Shown here piece after piece: positions 9,713 to 14,648 of a stretch of 64,000 bases of DNA. The position numbers and the translations under genes were made by a program. The stretch spans positions 1 through 64,000 of the forward strand of contig CALUWH010000001.1 in assembly GCA_944324435.1 (NCBI GenBank), written 5' to 3'. This stretch comes from Candidatus Gastranaerophilales bacterium (lineage in GTDB: Bacteria; Cyanobacteriota; Vampirovibrionia; Gastranaerophilales; Gastranaerophilaceae). Every line of letters begins with the position of its first letter. Within the stretch, counting starts at the first letter, position 1. Below the pieces are notes generated by a model. The model was not told the DNA's origin and did not search any database. It saw only the letters and a program-made list of their open reading frames with translations.

Positions 9713-10384
9713 CTATTGAGGTCTTGCTTTCAGTTTTTCTTTCATAACAAGTTTTAACTCAACACGGCGGCTCTTGTTGTAATCTTCTTTGCCGTTTGAG
9801 ATTATCGGATTAGAAAAACTGGCTCCCTCTACAATTATCATTTTTCTGAGGCGCTGGCCGTTTGCTTTATTATACTGCGTGCTTGTCATGTAATTAGCAA
9901 CCGCATAAGCTCTCTTTAGACTTAATTCCATGTTCTTCATATACTGCTCGTCTTCGGAATACTCACCCCTAAATGTTTGAGAGTCCGTGTGACCTTGTAT
10001 AATAATTTTTTCAATATTCTTATTAAGATATTCATTTGAAAAGAGCGAGTTAAAATAAGCCGGTGCAAACTTATCCAAATACTTTTTGCCATTCTCCGAA
10101 AGTTCAAAACTATTGACCTCAAAAAGTTCCAAATCCGATATTTTCACAACTCCCGAGACTTCATCAATACTTGCTTCAATATTTTGCTCTTTTAATGTTT
10201 CCTCAAGCGCAGCAGAGGCTTTTTTCTGTTCCAGCGTGCCCTCGATTTTTTCGTAATAGCTCGTCATATATGTGTAGAAAAACAAAACAATAAAAACCAG
10301 TACCAATGCTGTCATTAGGTCTGTCATTGTTACCCAGAATATATTATTTTCACCGCTGTCATCTTTGTGTGGCTTGACTCTCAT
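9713..10384 (-). CDS. MotB/OmpA-like stator protein (ZorB-like)
   Basis: A 223-residue inner-membrane protein with one N-terminal membrane helix (about 17-40) preceded by IFWVTMTDLMTAL. The aspartate there sits where the proton-carrying Asp of MotB lies. A coiled linker (45-75) leads to an OmpA-like peptidoglycan-binding domain (about 85-215) with GHTDS, LSLKRA and KSRRVEL, the conserved Asp and Arg set. It follows the MotA-like gene by 11 bases in the same operon. The pair matches the ZorA/ZorB layout of Zorya anti-phage systems at least as well as a flagellar stator. No zorC, zorD or zorE homologue is recognised. Confidence 0.8.
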   Translation of the reverse strand: MRVKPHKDDSGENNIFWVTMTDLMTALVLVFIVLFFYTYMTSYYEKIEGTLEQKKASAALEETLKEQNIEASIDEVSGVVKISDLELFEVNSFELSENGKKYLDKFAPAYFNSLFSNEYLNKNIEKIIIQGHTDSQTFRGEYSEDEQYMKNMELSLKRAYAVANYMTSTQYNKANGQRLRKMIIVEGASFSNPIISNGKEDYNKSRRVELKLVMKEKLKARPQ

Positions 10385-10395
10385 ACTGTATTACC

Positions 10396-11283
10396 CTAGA
10401 ACAATTTATCTACAACATCATCGCCGCTGGAATTTTTGCTCATTAATTCATTAAGTTTATTTAAACCGTACAAAATATTTTCTAAATATGGTGTTGTTGT
10501 TTCGCCAAGACTCTTTGCAACCGCCTTCGCAAAATCATCGGGCAAAGCCTTTAGGAGTTTTTCGTTAGTAATATTTTGAATTTTTGATTCTTTGACCAAA
10601 TCAATAAGGAATTTTTCACTCGTTACGACATCAAACAGGCGGATAAATTCTTTTTGGATTGCCAAATAGTATTTTTTACACATTCTGTTATAAAGTATCT
10701 TTTCAATAAACATAAAAAGAAGCGAAAACCCAACTGCAAAGACCGAGCACAGAGCGGCAATTTGAATATTCGCAATTAAACCATTCAAGGAATTGCCGAC
10801 ATTCGAGTCAATTGAAAAATTAACTTGGGTAAATGCTATAGCCATTTTCAAGAACGTGAAAAAAGGCCCCAAGCCGGTCAGGAGTGTCGGCATAGTTTGA
10901 ATAAACTTGTTATTTATTTTGGAATAAACAAGAGATTCTTCATTAAAAAAATACGAAGCATCTATTGTTAAATAAATTTCGGGCTTAAAATCTCCCGTAG
11001 ACTTTGCATTTTGAGAAGCAATAAACAATTTTTCCGGGAAAATAAGCGCTTTTTTAAAATCCTCCCAGGCTGTTGCCGTAAATAAGTTTGCGGCCATAAA
11101 TTCATCCAGCTGCTGAAATCTGTATGAGAGTTCTTTTTTATTAAGTGTTTTCAGAAATTCATAAACAGAATTAAGATTTTTTTGGACTCTTGTGTAATTT
11201 CTTATAACCGTCATTATGAAAAACAAGAAAAATATCGTAATTATTAGAATCGCCGGTTCCGTTAATATTGAAAAAATTGTCAT
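10396..11283 (-). CDS. MotA/ExbB-like proton channel protein (ZorA-like)
   Basis: A 295-residue membrane protein with three predicted helices: about 8-28, 132-156 (TLLTGLGPFFTFLKMAI) and 172-198 (IQIAALCSVFAVGFSLLF). The phrase PTLLTGLGPFFTFL resembles the T-x-x-G-L-G-x-x-x-T-F motif shared by ZorA and MotA/TolQ/ExbB channels. A large cytoplasmic loop separates helices 1 and 2, and a helical tail of about 85 residues follows helix 3; ZorA proteins usually have a much longer tail. With the downstream MotB-like gene it would form a peptidoglycan-anchored proton-driven motor. It is transcribed away from the 1095-residue gene, with 77 bases between them. Confidence 0.75.
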   Translation of the reverse strand: MTIFSILTEPAILIITIFFLFFIMTVIRNYTRVQKNLNSVYEFLKTLNKKELSYRFQQLDEFMAANLFTATAWEDFKKALIFPEKLFIASQNAKSTGDFKPEIYLTIDASYFFNEESLVYSKINNKFIQTMPTLLTGLGPFFTFLKMAIAFTQVNFSIDSNVGNSLNGLIANIQIAALCSVFAVGFSLLFMFIEKILYNRMCKKYYLAIQKEFIRLFDVVTSEKFLIDLVKESKIQNITNEKLLKALPDDFAKAVAKSLGETTTPYLENILYGLNKLNELMSKNSSGDDVVDKLF

Positions 11284-11347
11284 ACATTCCTCTTCTCAGA
11301 CAACTGAATACATTTACATCAGTATAGCATAATGTATCAATTTAGGC

Positions 11348-11353
11348 TATAAT
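11348..11353 (+). promoter_or_regulatory. -10 box, probably leaderless transcript
   Basis: TATAAT ends seven bases before the ATG at 11361 and no ribosome site lies between. The mRNA would start at the initiation codon. This 77-base gap also has to hold the promoter of the divergent motor operon. Confidence 0.5.
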
Positions 11354-11360
11354 TAAAAAT

Positions 11361-14300
11361 ATGGAATGTCCAAAATGCCACAAAAGAATCGGAGAGAATG
11401 AGACGATTTGTCCGCACTGCAGAAAAGTTATAGCTTTAGAGTGCCCAAATTGTCACAGTATCAGCCATTCATCAGTTTGTGAAGCCTGCGGATATATAAT
11501 TCTGACAAAATGCTCAAAATGCGGAAAAACGGTTCCAACCTCACAGGGAAAATGCAAATGCGGTTTTCCGACAAAAACAAGCCTTGCTTATCTGGAGTGC
11601 GAAACCGATGAATTTGCTTCTGTTATGATACAATTTTCCGCGCTTAAAAATATAAGGAGACTGCTAGGCTCACAGGAGCTCTTTTCAAAATTTTATTTTA
11701 GGCTTAAAAATCTTCTGACAGCCCAACTTAAAAATATTGAAGGCAAAGTCATAATTTACAATGATATTTTTGTAATCAATTTTAACAAAGAACTTTCTTT
11801 TCCTACATCCTCAAATAAAGCTGTTAGATTTGCTCTCAAAATTGCCAATGTTTTTTCGGAATTAAACTTAAAAATTATTGAGGAGCTGGGTACACCGCTC
11901 AACCTAAATATAACCATTGTGAAGAAAAATGCGGAAGAATTGCTTACAAAGTCGAATTTTGAGACAAATGTCAAACTGCTTGAAGTAAAAAAAGATGAAA
12001 AAAAATTTTTAAAAGGAATGCAAATTATTTTGGACCAGTTTGTGTGGGACTGCATTAATAAAGATTACAAAACAGACTCACTGTATTCTGTGGAGATAAA
12101 TAGCACCGCAATAATGTTCTATGAAATAACGCTTGAAAGTTATATTTTACCTCCTTCAGAGAGAAGCTCGGAAGCCGCAATGGAGGTTCAGCCGCAGTCT
12201 ATCAAAAAACCGGAAAAGAAACCGGTAGATGATATATACAGCTTTAAGGTCTTTGATATAAATGCAAAATGTAAATTCCATAAAGTCACTGCGGACACCC
12301 TTCTCAATTCGCTCGATGATAACAAGATTACATCAATAAGAACTGCAAAAGAGCTGGAAATACAGACATCAGAGCTTATAAATTATTATGAGTCCAAGGG
12401 GAAAAAAGTTATTCGCACGGTTTGCACGGAGGAATTGACTTATAAGCCGTGGGGTGTGTTTGAACAGCTTGCGAGAGATTTTTGGAACTTATCCGTGCAT
12501 AATTCGCTGATTAATCCTTCCGTGGATTATAAACGATTTAAAGCAATTTTTGATTTAATTTTGTTCAAACCGAGAAAGGCTGCGTCTGCAGAGGATGCCC
12601 GATTTGCGTATATGGAAGATTTCGGGAATTTACTGACTTCTATGAAAGATTACGTTATCCTGATTGAAGGATTTGAATATATGGACGACACAACTATTCA
12701 AACTCTGGAACTTTTCTTTGACAGGTTTAAAACAATTACACCTTGCTTTGTATTTGTAACCGGAAGCGAAACCTCGCTGCACTCAAAAATCAAAGGACTC
12801 CTCAGAACACCTCTGTATTCCGAGTTTTCACTTGTCAGAACAAGTATTGAGAATCTTCTGTCTGACTTGAAATTGGAGGCAACTGACTTTATACAGTCTT
12901 TTTATTACGAAAAAATTAAGGAAAATTTTAAGGGATCCTATTTGTATTTTGATAATGCTATCAAATATTTGACAGAAAAAAATATACTTATAAGTTTTGA
13001 AAACAGACTGCTTATAAAAGGTACAGGCTCGGTTATTCTTCCTGCTGATTTAAAAGGATTATTTAAGGCAAGACTCAAAACTTTAAGCAAAAATGCAGAT
13101 GCCTCTCTCATGCTTGCGTATTCAACTTATTTAGGCTCGCGTATTGATTTTGGTGTACTTGAGAAACTCGGAGTAAAAAATATTGCAAAAAACGCAGAAA
13201 TTCTTGAAAAAGCAGGATTTATATATTCAAGAAACAATGCTGTTTATATTAATAATTACAACCTTATCAAACCTGCAATAGAGGAGTCTTTAAAAAAAGA
13301 GGTTCAGGATTATTTATGCAAGAATATTCTTTCAAAGCTCGGCAAAGGGCTTGATGACACTTTGACGCTTCTTATTATGGGGCGTCTTGCGCATTATAAA
13401 GAAGAATATCTGCTTCTATGGCGCAACTCTCAGCTTTCCATGCAAACGGGAGATTATGATGCATATCTAAAAAACTGTCTGGGCTTCTTGTCATTGATTG
13501 AACATATAGAAAATAATATTCCGGAAGAAAGTATAGAAAACAACAAAAAGGAAGTTTTTCAAAATATATTGATGAGTCTTTACAATTACTCTCCCGAAAA
13601 AATTTATTCTATAGAGAATGTTCTGCTAATGGATGCAATTAATGAAAACGATAATGATAAGATTGTAAAACTCTCAAATCTTATGCTGCAAGGCGCGCTG
13701 ATTTCGTCAAATTATACGGATGCGCTGACTCTCTTGCATAATATTCTTACAAGAATGCAAAATCCGGTTCTTATTGTAGACGGAGCTGTTAACACCAAGT
13801 TTCTTTTGTTATCGCTTGTAAATATTGAGATTCTGTTTAACATAGGGGATTTTGCACAGTGCGTTGATGTTGCAAAAGACCTTCTCGGTGTTTTACAGCC
13901 GGAAATCCTGGAAAAAATTAAACCGCAGAGCTTTTCAACAAATCTTTTTGTAGAACATCTGTTTGAAACATTCAGGCTTGCGGCCTTCGCTAAGCTATTT
14001 TTGATGGATAATGATTTAGACAGCTTTTTTAATGCCGTCAAAGCATCTTTGGGTGATGATTTGCCCGAAAAAGACTGTATTATTGCAATAAAGGACTTTT
14101 TAAACGGAAAGAATTATGCAGTATCAAATATTGAGCAGGCAACAGCATTCTCCAAGATTATTTATCTTATATTGCAAGAATTTGCAGAACATAAAAAAGA
14201 TTACAAAATGTTTGCTCAAAATATTTATCAGGCAAAACTTCTTGCTTCCGATATTCGTCAGCTTCAGTTGGAATTATTCTGCGATTTGCTTATAGCATAC

Positions 14301-14648
14301 TCATACGCGAATATTGGAATTAAGGAAAAAGCGGAATCAATTTACAAAGATATATTGGAAAAATCTGAAAAATCAGCTATTTTCAACATTTTAACGCTTG
14401 CACGCTACTTTATGGCGCGGCTTAAAATCTCAAACAATGAGATTGAAAGTGCTTTGCTGATAATTAATGACACTCTTGCCCTGCTCCAAAAGTACAATAA
14501 TCACTCAAAGATTATTTATGCCTTATTTGAAAAACTTTTTATAGACACAGTAAAAGAGCAGGGTATATCTGCCGTTAATATAGATTCGGAAGAACAGAAA
14601 TTTTCGCAGCTTACCGAAGACGGTTCTCTTGCCGGATTACTCAGATAG
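11361..14648 (+). CDS. Zinc-ribbon / degenerate cyclase / degenerate AAA / TPR-like giant protein
   Basis: A 1095-residue multidomain protein. Residues 1-75 hold three zinc-ribbon modules (CPKC...CPHC, CPNC...CEAC, CSKC...CKC). About 80-260 follows the fold pattern of class III nucleotide cyclases, but the metal-binding aspartates are absent (the first strand reads ASVMIQFSAL). About 290-500 resembles the AAA_16/STAND domain that follows such cyclases: a Walker B-like VILIEGFEYMDD is present, but no GxxGxGK(S/T) Walker A exists anywhere. From about 560 to the end the protein is helical and repeat-rich, TPR-like. It looks like a sensor or scaffold built from inactivated enzyme domains. It is divergent from the ZorAB-like pair and probably leaderless. 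Confidence 0.75.
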   Translation: MECPKCHKRIGENETICPHCRKVIALECPNCHSISHSSVCEACGYIILTKCSKCGKTVPTSQGKCKCGFPTKTSLAYLECETDEFASVMIQFSALKNIRRLLGSQELFSKFYFRLKNLLTAQLKNIEGKVIIYNDIFVINFNKELSFPTSSNKAVRFALKIANVFSELNLKIIEELGTPLNLNITIVKKNAEELLTKSNFETNVKLLEVKKDEKKFLKGMQIILDQFVWDCINKDYKTDSLYSVEINSTAIMFYEITLESYILPPSERSSEAAMEVQPQSIKKPEKKPVDDIYSFKVFDINAKCKFHKVTADTLLNSLDDNKITSIRTAKELEIQTSELINYYESKGKKVIRTVCTEELTYKPWGVFEQLARDFWNLSVHNSLINPSVDYKRFKAIFDLILFKPRKAASAEDARFAYMEDFGNLLTSMKDYVILIEGFEYMDDTTIQTLELFFDRFKTITPCFVFVTGSETSLHSKIKGLLRTPLYSEFSLVRTSIENLLSDLKLEATDFIQSFYYEKIKENFKGSYLYFDNAIKYLTEKNILISFENRLLIKGTGSVILPADLKGLFKARLKTLSKNADASLMLAYSTYLGSRIDFGVLEKLGVKNIAKNAEILEKAGFIYSRNNAVYINNYNLIKPAIEESLKKEVQDYLCKNILSKLGKGLDDTLTLLIMGRLAHYKEEYLLLWRNSQLSMQTGDYDAYLKNCLGFLSLIEHIENNIPEESIENNKKEVFQNILMSLYNYSPEKIYSIENVLLMDAINENDNDKIVKLSNLMLQGALISSNYTDALTLLHNILTRMQNPVLIVDGAVNTKFLLLSLVNIEILFNIGDFAQCVDVAKDLLGVLQPEILEKIKPQSFSTNLFVEHLFETFRLAAFAKLFLMDNDLDSFFNAVKASLGDDLPEKDCIIAIKDFLNGKNYAVSNIEQATAFSKIIYLILQEFAEHKKDYKMFAQNIYQAKLLASDIRQLQLELFCDLLIAYSYANIGIKEKAESIYKDILEKSEKSAIFNILTLARYFMARLKISNNEIESALLIINDTLALLQKYNNHSKIIYALFEKLFIDTVKEQGISAVNIDSEEQKFSQLTEDGSLAGLLR

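What the first reader, a model, noticed from the sequence alone, without database searches (positions are those of the whole stretch)
9713..14648. ZorAB-like motor pair divergent from a giant inactivated-enzyme scaffold
Seen: a MotA-like (10396-11283) and MotB/OmpA-like (9713-10384) pair, then 77 bases away and divergent a 1095-residue protein with three zinc ribbons, a cyclase-like domain without metal aspartates, an AAA-like domain with Walker B but no Walker A, and helical repeats. Known: Zorya anti-phage systems use a ZorA/ZorB peptidoglycan-anchored proton motor plus variable effectors (ZorC/D or ZorE). Inference: the large protein could be a sensor or effector coupled to the motor, a Zorya-like variant not described. 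No other flagellar stator gene is adjacent. The alternative is a housekeeping envelope motor.
Basis: partly seen in the sequence, partly recalled or inferred. Interest (0 to 1): 0.8.

Follow-up and report, generated by a model that had tools for sequence, protein, structure and literature searches.

The report
Tail-less Zorya-type motor with pseudoenzyme scaffold
A group of gut bacteria carries, as an inherited core gene set and not as a movable defence island, a small ion-motor pair of the kind known from the Zorya anti-phage system but without its essential long tail, nearly always together with one giant protein built from two dead enzyme domains; this suggests that Zorya-type motors also do other work in cells.

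Summary
In a Gastranaerophilales (Melainabacteria) genome, 9713-11283 encodes a ZorB/ZorA-type motor pair; by sequence and predicted fold its nearest solved relatives are Zorya ZorA and ZorB. Divergent from it, 11361-14648 encodes a 1095-residue protein: three zinc ribbons, a class III cyclase fold without its first metal aspartate, a STAND/AAA domain without Walker A, and TPR repeats.

The Zorya-defence reading is only partly supported. The ZorA has no tail; every close homologue in the order is about 295-350 aa, while the Zorya tail is reported to be required. There is no ZorC/D/E, no defence-island context, and no copy in plasmids, phages or viral contigs. Genuine Zorya I and II occur separately in the same order, once in a genome that also carries the trio.

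The functional link is strong. Pair and scaffold are divergent neighbours in three families. Where they sit apart they are still kept or lost together: 29 genera both, 12 neither, none discordant, with 4-5 separate changes on a tree. They do not follow flagella.

Best reading: a lineage-specific, vertically inherited Zorya-type motor whose cytoplasmic partner is this pseudoenzyme scaffold. Its cellular output is unknown; a fixed core defence is not excluded.

The parts
9713..10384 (-). ZorB-type B subunit, 223 aa: one TM helix with ion-path Asp22 (WVTMTDLM), then OmpA-like peptidoglycan-binding domain (GHTD, Arg158, SRRVEL)
   Evidence: the Asp and PG-site residues are invariant in 10 homologues of three families
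10396..11283 (-). Tail-less ZorA-type A subunit, 295 aa: transmembrane core plus about 80 further residues; first gene of the pair
   Evidence: aligns to ZorA 10-250 only; model matches ZorA structures E 1e-10 against 0.04 for TolQ; T143 and S180 invariant in alignment A1
11284..11360 (.). 77-nt divergent intergenic region; promoters not demonstrated (promoter-like sites in the scan are at chance level)
11361..14648 (+). 1095-aa pseudoenzyme scaffold: Zn ribbons (1-70), degenerate class III cyclase domain (73-262), low-confidence linker (267-302), degenerate STAND/AAA domain (304-660), TPR array (665-1095)

Best explanation
A lineage-specific, vertically inherited rotary-motor module. ZorA and ZorB type subunits form a peptidoglycan-anchored, ion-driven inner-membrane motor (assembly inferred from ZorAB structures, not shown here). 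The A subunit lacks the long cytoplasmic tail through which Zorya motors act. The cytoplasmic partner is instead the divergently encoded 1095-residue protein, a STAND/cyclase-derived pseudoenzyme whose TPR array, dead NTPase and dead cyclase folds and zinc ribbons would act as a docking scaffold or clutch that passes motor rotation or motor state to other cytoplasmic factors. Shown: family of the pair, absence of the tail, domain make-up and loss of key motifs, joint inheritance, independence from flagella and from mobile defence loci. Inferred: physical contact between scaffold and ZorA, and direction of coupling. Not known: the cellular output.
For: ZorAB-type identity. Tail missing in every close homologue in the order (ORFs up to about 350 aa). 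Coupling: divergent neighbours in the window's genus, in other genera of the family and in two other families (23% and 20% identity of the large protein) with different flanks. When unlinked, genus-level presence still matches: 29 both, 12 neither, 0 discordant (Fisher p 1e-10, not corrected for phylogeny); 5 changes on a GlgA tree, 4 forced by well supported branches. Distance matrices of scaffold and ZorA correlate at r 0.92, against 0.61 for scaffold and LysS. Not flagellar: FliG distribution differs and the flagellated genomes tested have a separate MotA. Core and not mobile. Site-exact absence of the whole trio in one sister genome (G025) next to the same chromate-transporter genes.
Against: No contact between scaffold and motor was tested. 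In G024 the pair is absent at the site while the scaffold (in two contig-end pieces without stops) remains directly beside the chromate-transporter gene, and five more genomes have the scaffold but no detectable ZorA, and three the reverse; some of these are incomplete genomes, but the scaffold may have a role without the motor. In many genera the scaffold gene precedes and sometimes overlaps glgA, which points to a possible other partner, although glgA itself is present regardless of the trio. Scaffold and ZorA are adjacent in the window's genus, so their matching distances partly reflect linkage.
Confidence: 0.55

Rival explanations
1. A Zorya-like anti-phage system that has become fixed as core immunity: the motor senses envelope breach by phage and the STAND-derived protein, which resembles Avs-type sensors in fold, triggers the response.
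For: The pair is closest to ZorAB; the large protein has a STAND plus TPR layout with weak Foldseek similarity to Avs3/Avs4; it evolves much faster than LysS (mean identity 58% against 92%).
Against: No tail, no ZorC/D/E, Walker A lost so no STAND NTPase cycle is expected, core and vertical distribution, no defence neighbours in the tested flanks, no plasmid or phage copies. True Zorya I and II exist separately in the order.
Confidence: 0.17
2. An envelope sensor: the motor's ion flow or strain on peptidoglycan reports wall or membrane state, and the pseudoenzyme, MalT-like in layout, relays it to gene expression or metabolism (for example glycogen, as its gene often lies next to glgA).
For: STAND/MalT-like and peptide-sensor TPR folds; scaffold-glgA neighbourhood in 16 of 21 other genera of the family checked, with gaps of -4 to 24 nt.
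Against: glgA is present with or without the trio and is elsewhere in the window's genome; no DNA-binding domain was recognised; zinc ribbons alone do not show nucleic-acid binding.
Confidence: 0.2
3. An auxiliary flagellar stator.
For: MotAB-type subunits in a genome that has FliG.
Against: Many genera have the trio without FliG (17 of 29) and several have FliG without the trio (6 of 12); Fisher p 0.73. Flagellated genomes tested have their own MotA. The predicted fold is ZorA-type.
Confidence: 0.03

Closest known systems
Zorya type I and II ZorA/ZorB (PDB 8qyd, 8vvn, 8vvi; PMC11890865)
   Same: Same two-subunit motor family; ion-path Asp (D22 aligns with D26 of 8qyd ZorB), OmpA-like peptidoglycan-binding domain, ZorA membrane core
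   Different: ZorA tail missing; no ZorC/D or ZorE; partner is a pseudoenzyme scaffold; core vertical inheritance instead of patchy defence loci
Flagellar MotAB and generic ion transporters ExbBD/TolQR (grouping in PMC12505986)
   Same: Ion-driven A/B membrane motors
   Different: PF01618 does not detect the pair; separate TolQ/ExbB-like proteins, and MotA in the flagellated genomes tested, are present besides it
STAND ATPases with TPR sensor (6mfv, MalT 8bob) and Avs sensors
   Same: NTPase-like core followed by a TPR array, by predicted fold
   Different: No Walker A; added zinc ribbons and a degenerate cyclase domain; no known effector domain
Class III adenylate/guanylate cyclases (PaCyaB 3r5g, CyaC 1wc3)
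   Same: Fold of residues 73-262
   Different: First metal-binding Asp absent in 20/20 homologues, second absent in most

Membership tests
Zorya anti-phage system | ZorA/ZorB motor pair, adjacent genes | tested here: met
Zorya anti-phage system | long cytoplasmic ZorA tail, reported as required in types I and II | tested here: not met
   295 aa; all close homologues in the order up to about 350 aa; requirement from PMC11890865
Zorya anti-phage system | ZorC/ZorD or ZorE effector gene beside the pair | tested here: not met
   no PADLOC hit for the large protein and no Zorya hit among six flanking proteins; neighbours across genera show none
Zorya anti-phage system | protects against phage | not testable with these tools
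   needs plating assays
Flagellar MotAB stator | co-occurs with flagellar rotor FliG | tested here: not met
Flagellar MotAB stator | A subunit matches the MotA_ExbB profile PF01618 | tested here: not met
STAND/AAA ATPase | Walker A motif | tested here: not met
   absent in 20/20; a remnant GETNTGKL in L031; a 982-aa paralogue in the window's genome keeps GDSGCGKN
STAND/AAA ATPase | STAND plus TPR fold | tested here: met
   6mfv E 2.6e-10; MalT 8bob Z 16.6, on a model of mean pLDDT 77
Class III nucleotidyl cyclase | cyclase homology fold | tested here: met
Class III nucleotidyl cyclase | two metal-binding aspartates | tested here: not met

The most novel reading that the evidence does not exclude
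A non-defence use of a Zorya-type motor: rotation or ion flow is passed to the cytoplasm through a purpose-built pseudoenzyme scaffold in place of the ZorA tail, as a core cell-envelope function of gut Gastranaerophilales.
Probability: 0.4. Interest if true: 0.8.

Novelty: new variant of a known kind. Interest (0 to 1): 0.58.

Why it matters
To my knowledge ZorAB motors are known only from phage defence, where the tail is thought to carry the signal inward. A tail-less, core-inherited version tied to one large partner would show that these motors have a second role, would give a natural test of what the tail does, and would warn that ZorAB hits alone (PADLOC scores both genes here) do not show a Zorya system.

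Tried and rejected
Flagellar stator: rejected by the FliG and MotA distribution. Zorya with a missed effector: six flanking proteins and the large protein have no PADLOC effector hit. glgA as a fourth member: it is a frequent neighbour of the scaffold but is present in trio-negative genera too. DUF711, UvrC and ribosomal-protein neighbours of the pair in other genera look like chance core context. Mobile-element origin: no hit in plasmids, phages or viral contigs, though few Gastranaerophilales plasmids are likely to be held. Sequence search of the large protein against PDB gave nothing. Paper searches on tail-less ZorA or ZorAB in Melainabacteria found none. Promoter scan at chance level. The first flagella pairing mis-scored G025, which has MotA; redone. 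Contact between scaffold and ZorA could not be modelled, as only single chains can be folded.

Full report
The window lies in a genome of the Candidatus Gastranaerophilales (record titles of close matches). Three genes were checked: ZorB-like 9713-10384(-), ZorA-like 10396-11283(-) and a divergent 1095-residue protein 11361-14648(+), with 77 nt between the divergent starts. The described features are present.

The pair. The B subunit has a MotB-plug-like helix and an OmpA domain and scores best with ZorB profiles (8e-52). The A subunit is missed by Pfam but matches ZorA profiles over their first third only, and its best PDB hits are Zorya ZorA chains. A model of the A subunit (mean pLDDT 72) matches ZorA structures at E 1e-10, with TolQ next at 0.04. 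Asp22 of the B subunit aligns with Asp26 of 8qyd ZorB, and the GHTD and SRRVEL motifs are invariant. In the A subunit T143 and S180 are invariant and align with T147 and S184 of E. coli ZorA; that those two line the ion path is from memory. Assembly as a 5:2 motor is inferred from the relatives.

The missing tail. ORFs of about 250 homologues in the order are up to about 350 aa. Outside the order, in the same phylum, only weak matches to ORFs of 466-735 aa appear. Published work reports the ZorA tail as important for defence in types I and II (PMC11890865).

The large protein. Twelve zinc-ribbon cysteines are conserved in 20 of 20 divergent homologues. The first cyclase metal Asp is absent in 20 of 20, the second is kept only in part of the window's genus, and Walker A is absent in 20 of 20, with a near-consensus remnant (GETNTGKL) in one distant homologue. 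The model (mean pLDDT 76.8, pTM 0.52) places a class III cyclase fold at 73-262 and a STAND/MalT-like core followed by TPRs. A 982-residue zinc-ribbon/AAA/TPR paralogue elsewhere in the genome keeps its P-loop.

Linkage and joint inheritance. The trio is a divergent unit in nearly all sister genomes and, with different flanks, in two other families and several other genera. In many genera the pair and the large protein are far apart, yet by genus the two are both present in 29 and both absent in 12, with no discordant genus. Fisher p is 1e-10 without phylogenetic correction; on a GlgA tree of 37 genomes the state changes 5 times, 4 on well supported branches, and the pair and the large protein agree at every tip. 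That gives only 4-5 independent contrasts, so the tree-corrected evidence is consistent but small. At genome level there are exceptions: six genomes with the large protein and no ZorA found, three the other way. In G024 the pair is absent from the expected place while the large protein remains; in G025 the whole trio is absent next to the same chromate-transporter genes. In the window's genus, distances of ZorA and the large protein correlate at 0.92, of the large protein and LysS at 0.61; adjacency contributes to this.

What it is not. FliG is present in 12 of 29 trio-positive and 6 of 12 trio-negative genera, and flagellated genomes tested have a separate MotA, so it is not the flagellar stator. 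Six flanking proteins have no PADLOC system hit beyond generic TPR and PrimPol profiles for one of them. No homologue was found in plasmids, phages or viral contigs. True Zorya occurs in the same order: ZorA 542 aa with ZorB and ZorC beside type I restriction genes in G042, which also has the trio, and ZorA 400 aa with ZorB and ZorE in another family.

A frequent neighbour. In 16 of 21 other genera of the family that were checked, the scaffold gene lies directly upstream of glgA with gaps of -4 to 24 nt, also in genera where the motor pair is still divergent on its other side. glgA itself is present with or without the trio, so it is not part of the co-inherited set, but a tie to glycogen metabolism is left open.

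Conclusion. The best supported reading is a lineage-specific, core-inherited Zorya-type motor whose cytoplasmic partner is a pseudoenzyme scaffold. The family, the missing tail, the dead motifs and the joint inheritance are shown; contact, direction of coupling and output are inferred or unknown. A defence role that became fixed is not excluded.

Noticed in passing
L042:3223-6869 (G042:C200): Genuine type I Zorya (ZorA 542 aa, ZorB, ZorC) beside type I restriction genes, in a genome that also carries the tail-less trio.
   Followed up: partly
L045:5931-8831; similar gene order in L044 and L046: Type II Zorya: ZorA 400 aa, ZorB, and a 276-aa ZorE-like HNH protein, in another family of the same order.
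   Followed up: partly
L043:671-5836 (G017:C49): Long-tailed ZorA (504 aa) and ZorB divergent from a 959-aa SNF2-type helicase that scores with DrmD and ZorD profiles.
   Followed up: partly
L170:1009-5836, L236, L237, L242, L245-L256 and others: The scaffold gene directly precedes glgA in most genera where it is unlinked from the pair, often with overlapping ends; glgA is not restricted to these genomes.
   Followed up: partly
L048:5270-8218 (window genome, contig C33): A 982-aa zinc-ribbon/AAA/TPR paralogue with an apparent P-loop, without the cyclase-like domain.
   Followed up: partly
L111:8020-9024: A secreted-looking 334-aa protein of no known Pfam family lies just upstream of zorA; ORFs of similar length sit at that place in a few other loci (L110, L112, L139, L149), not compared by sequence.
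   Followed up: no
L035:4378-5022 and downstream of the scaffold in 19 loci: A conserved protein of about 214 aa without a Pfam match often follows the scaffold gene in the window's genus.
   Followed up: no
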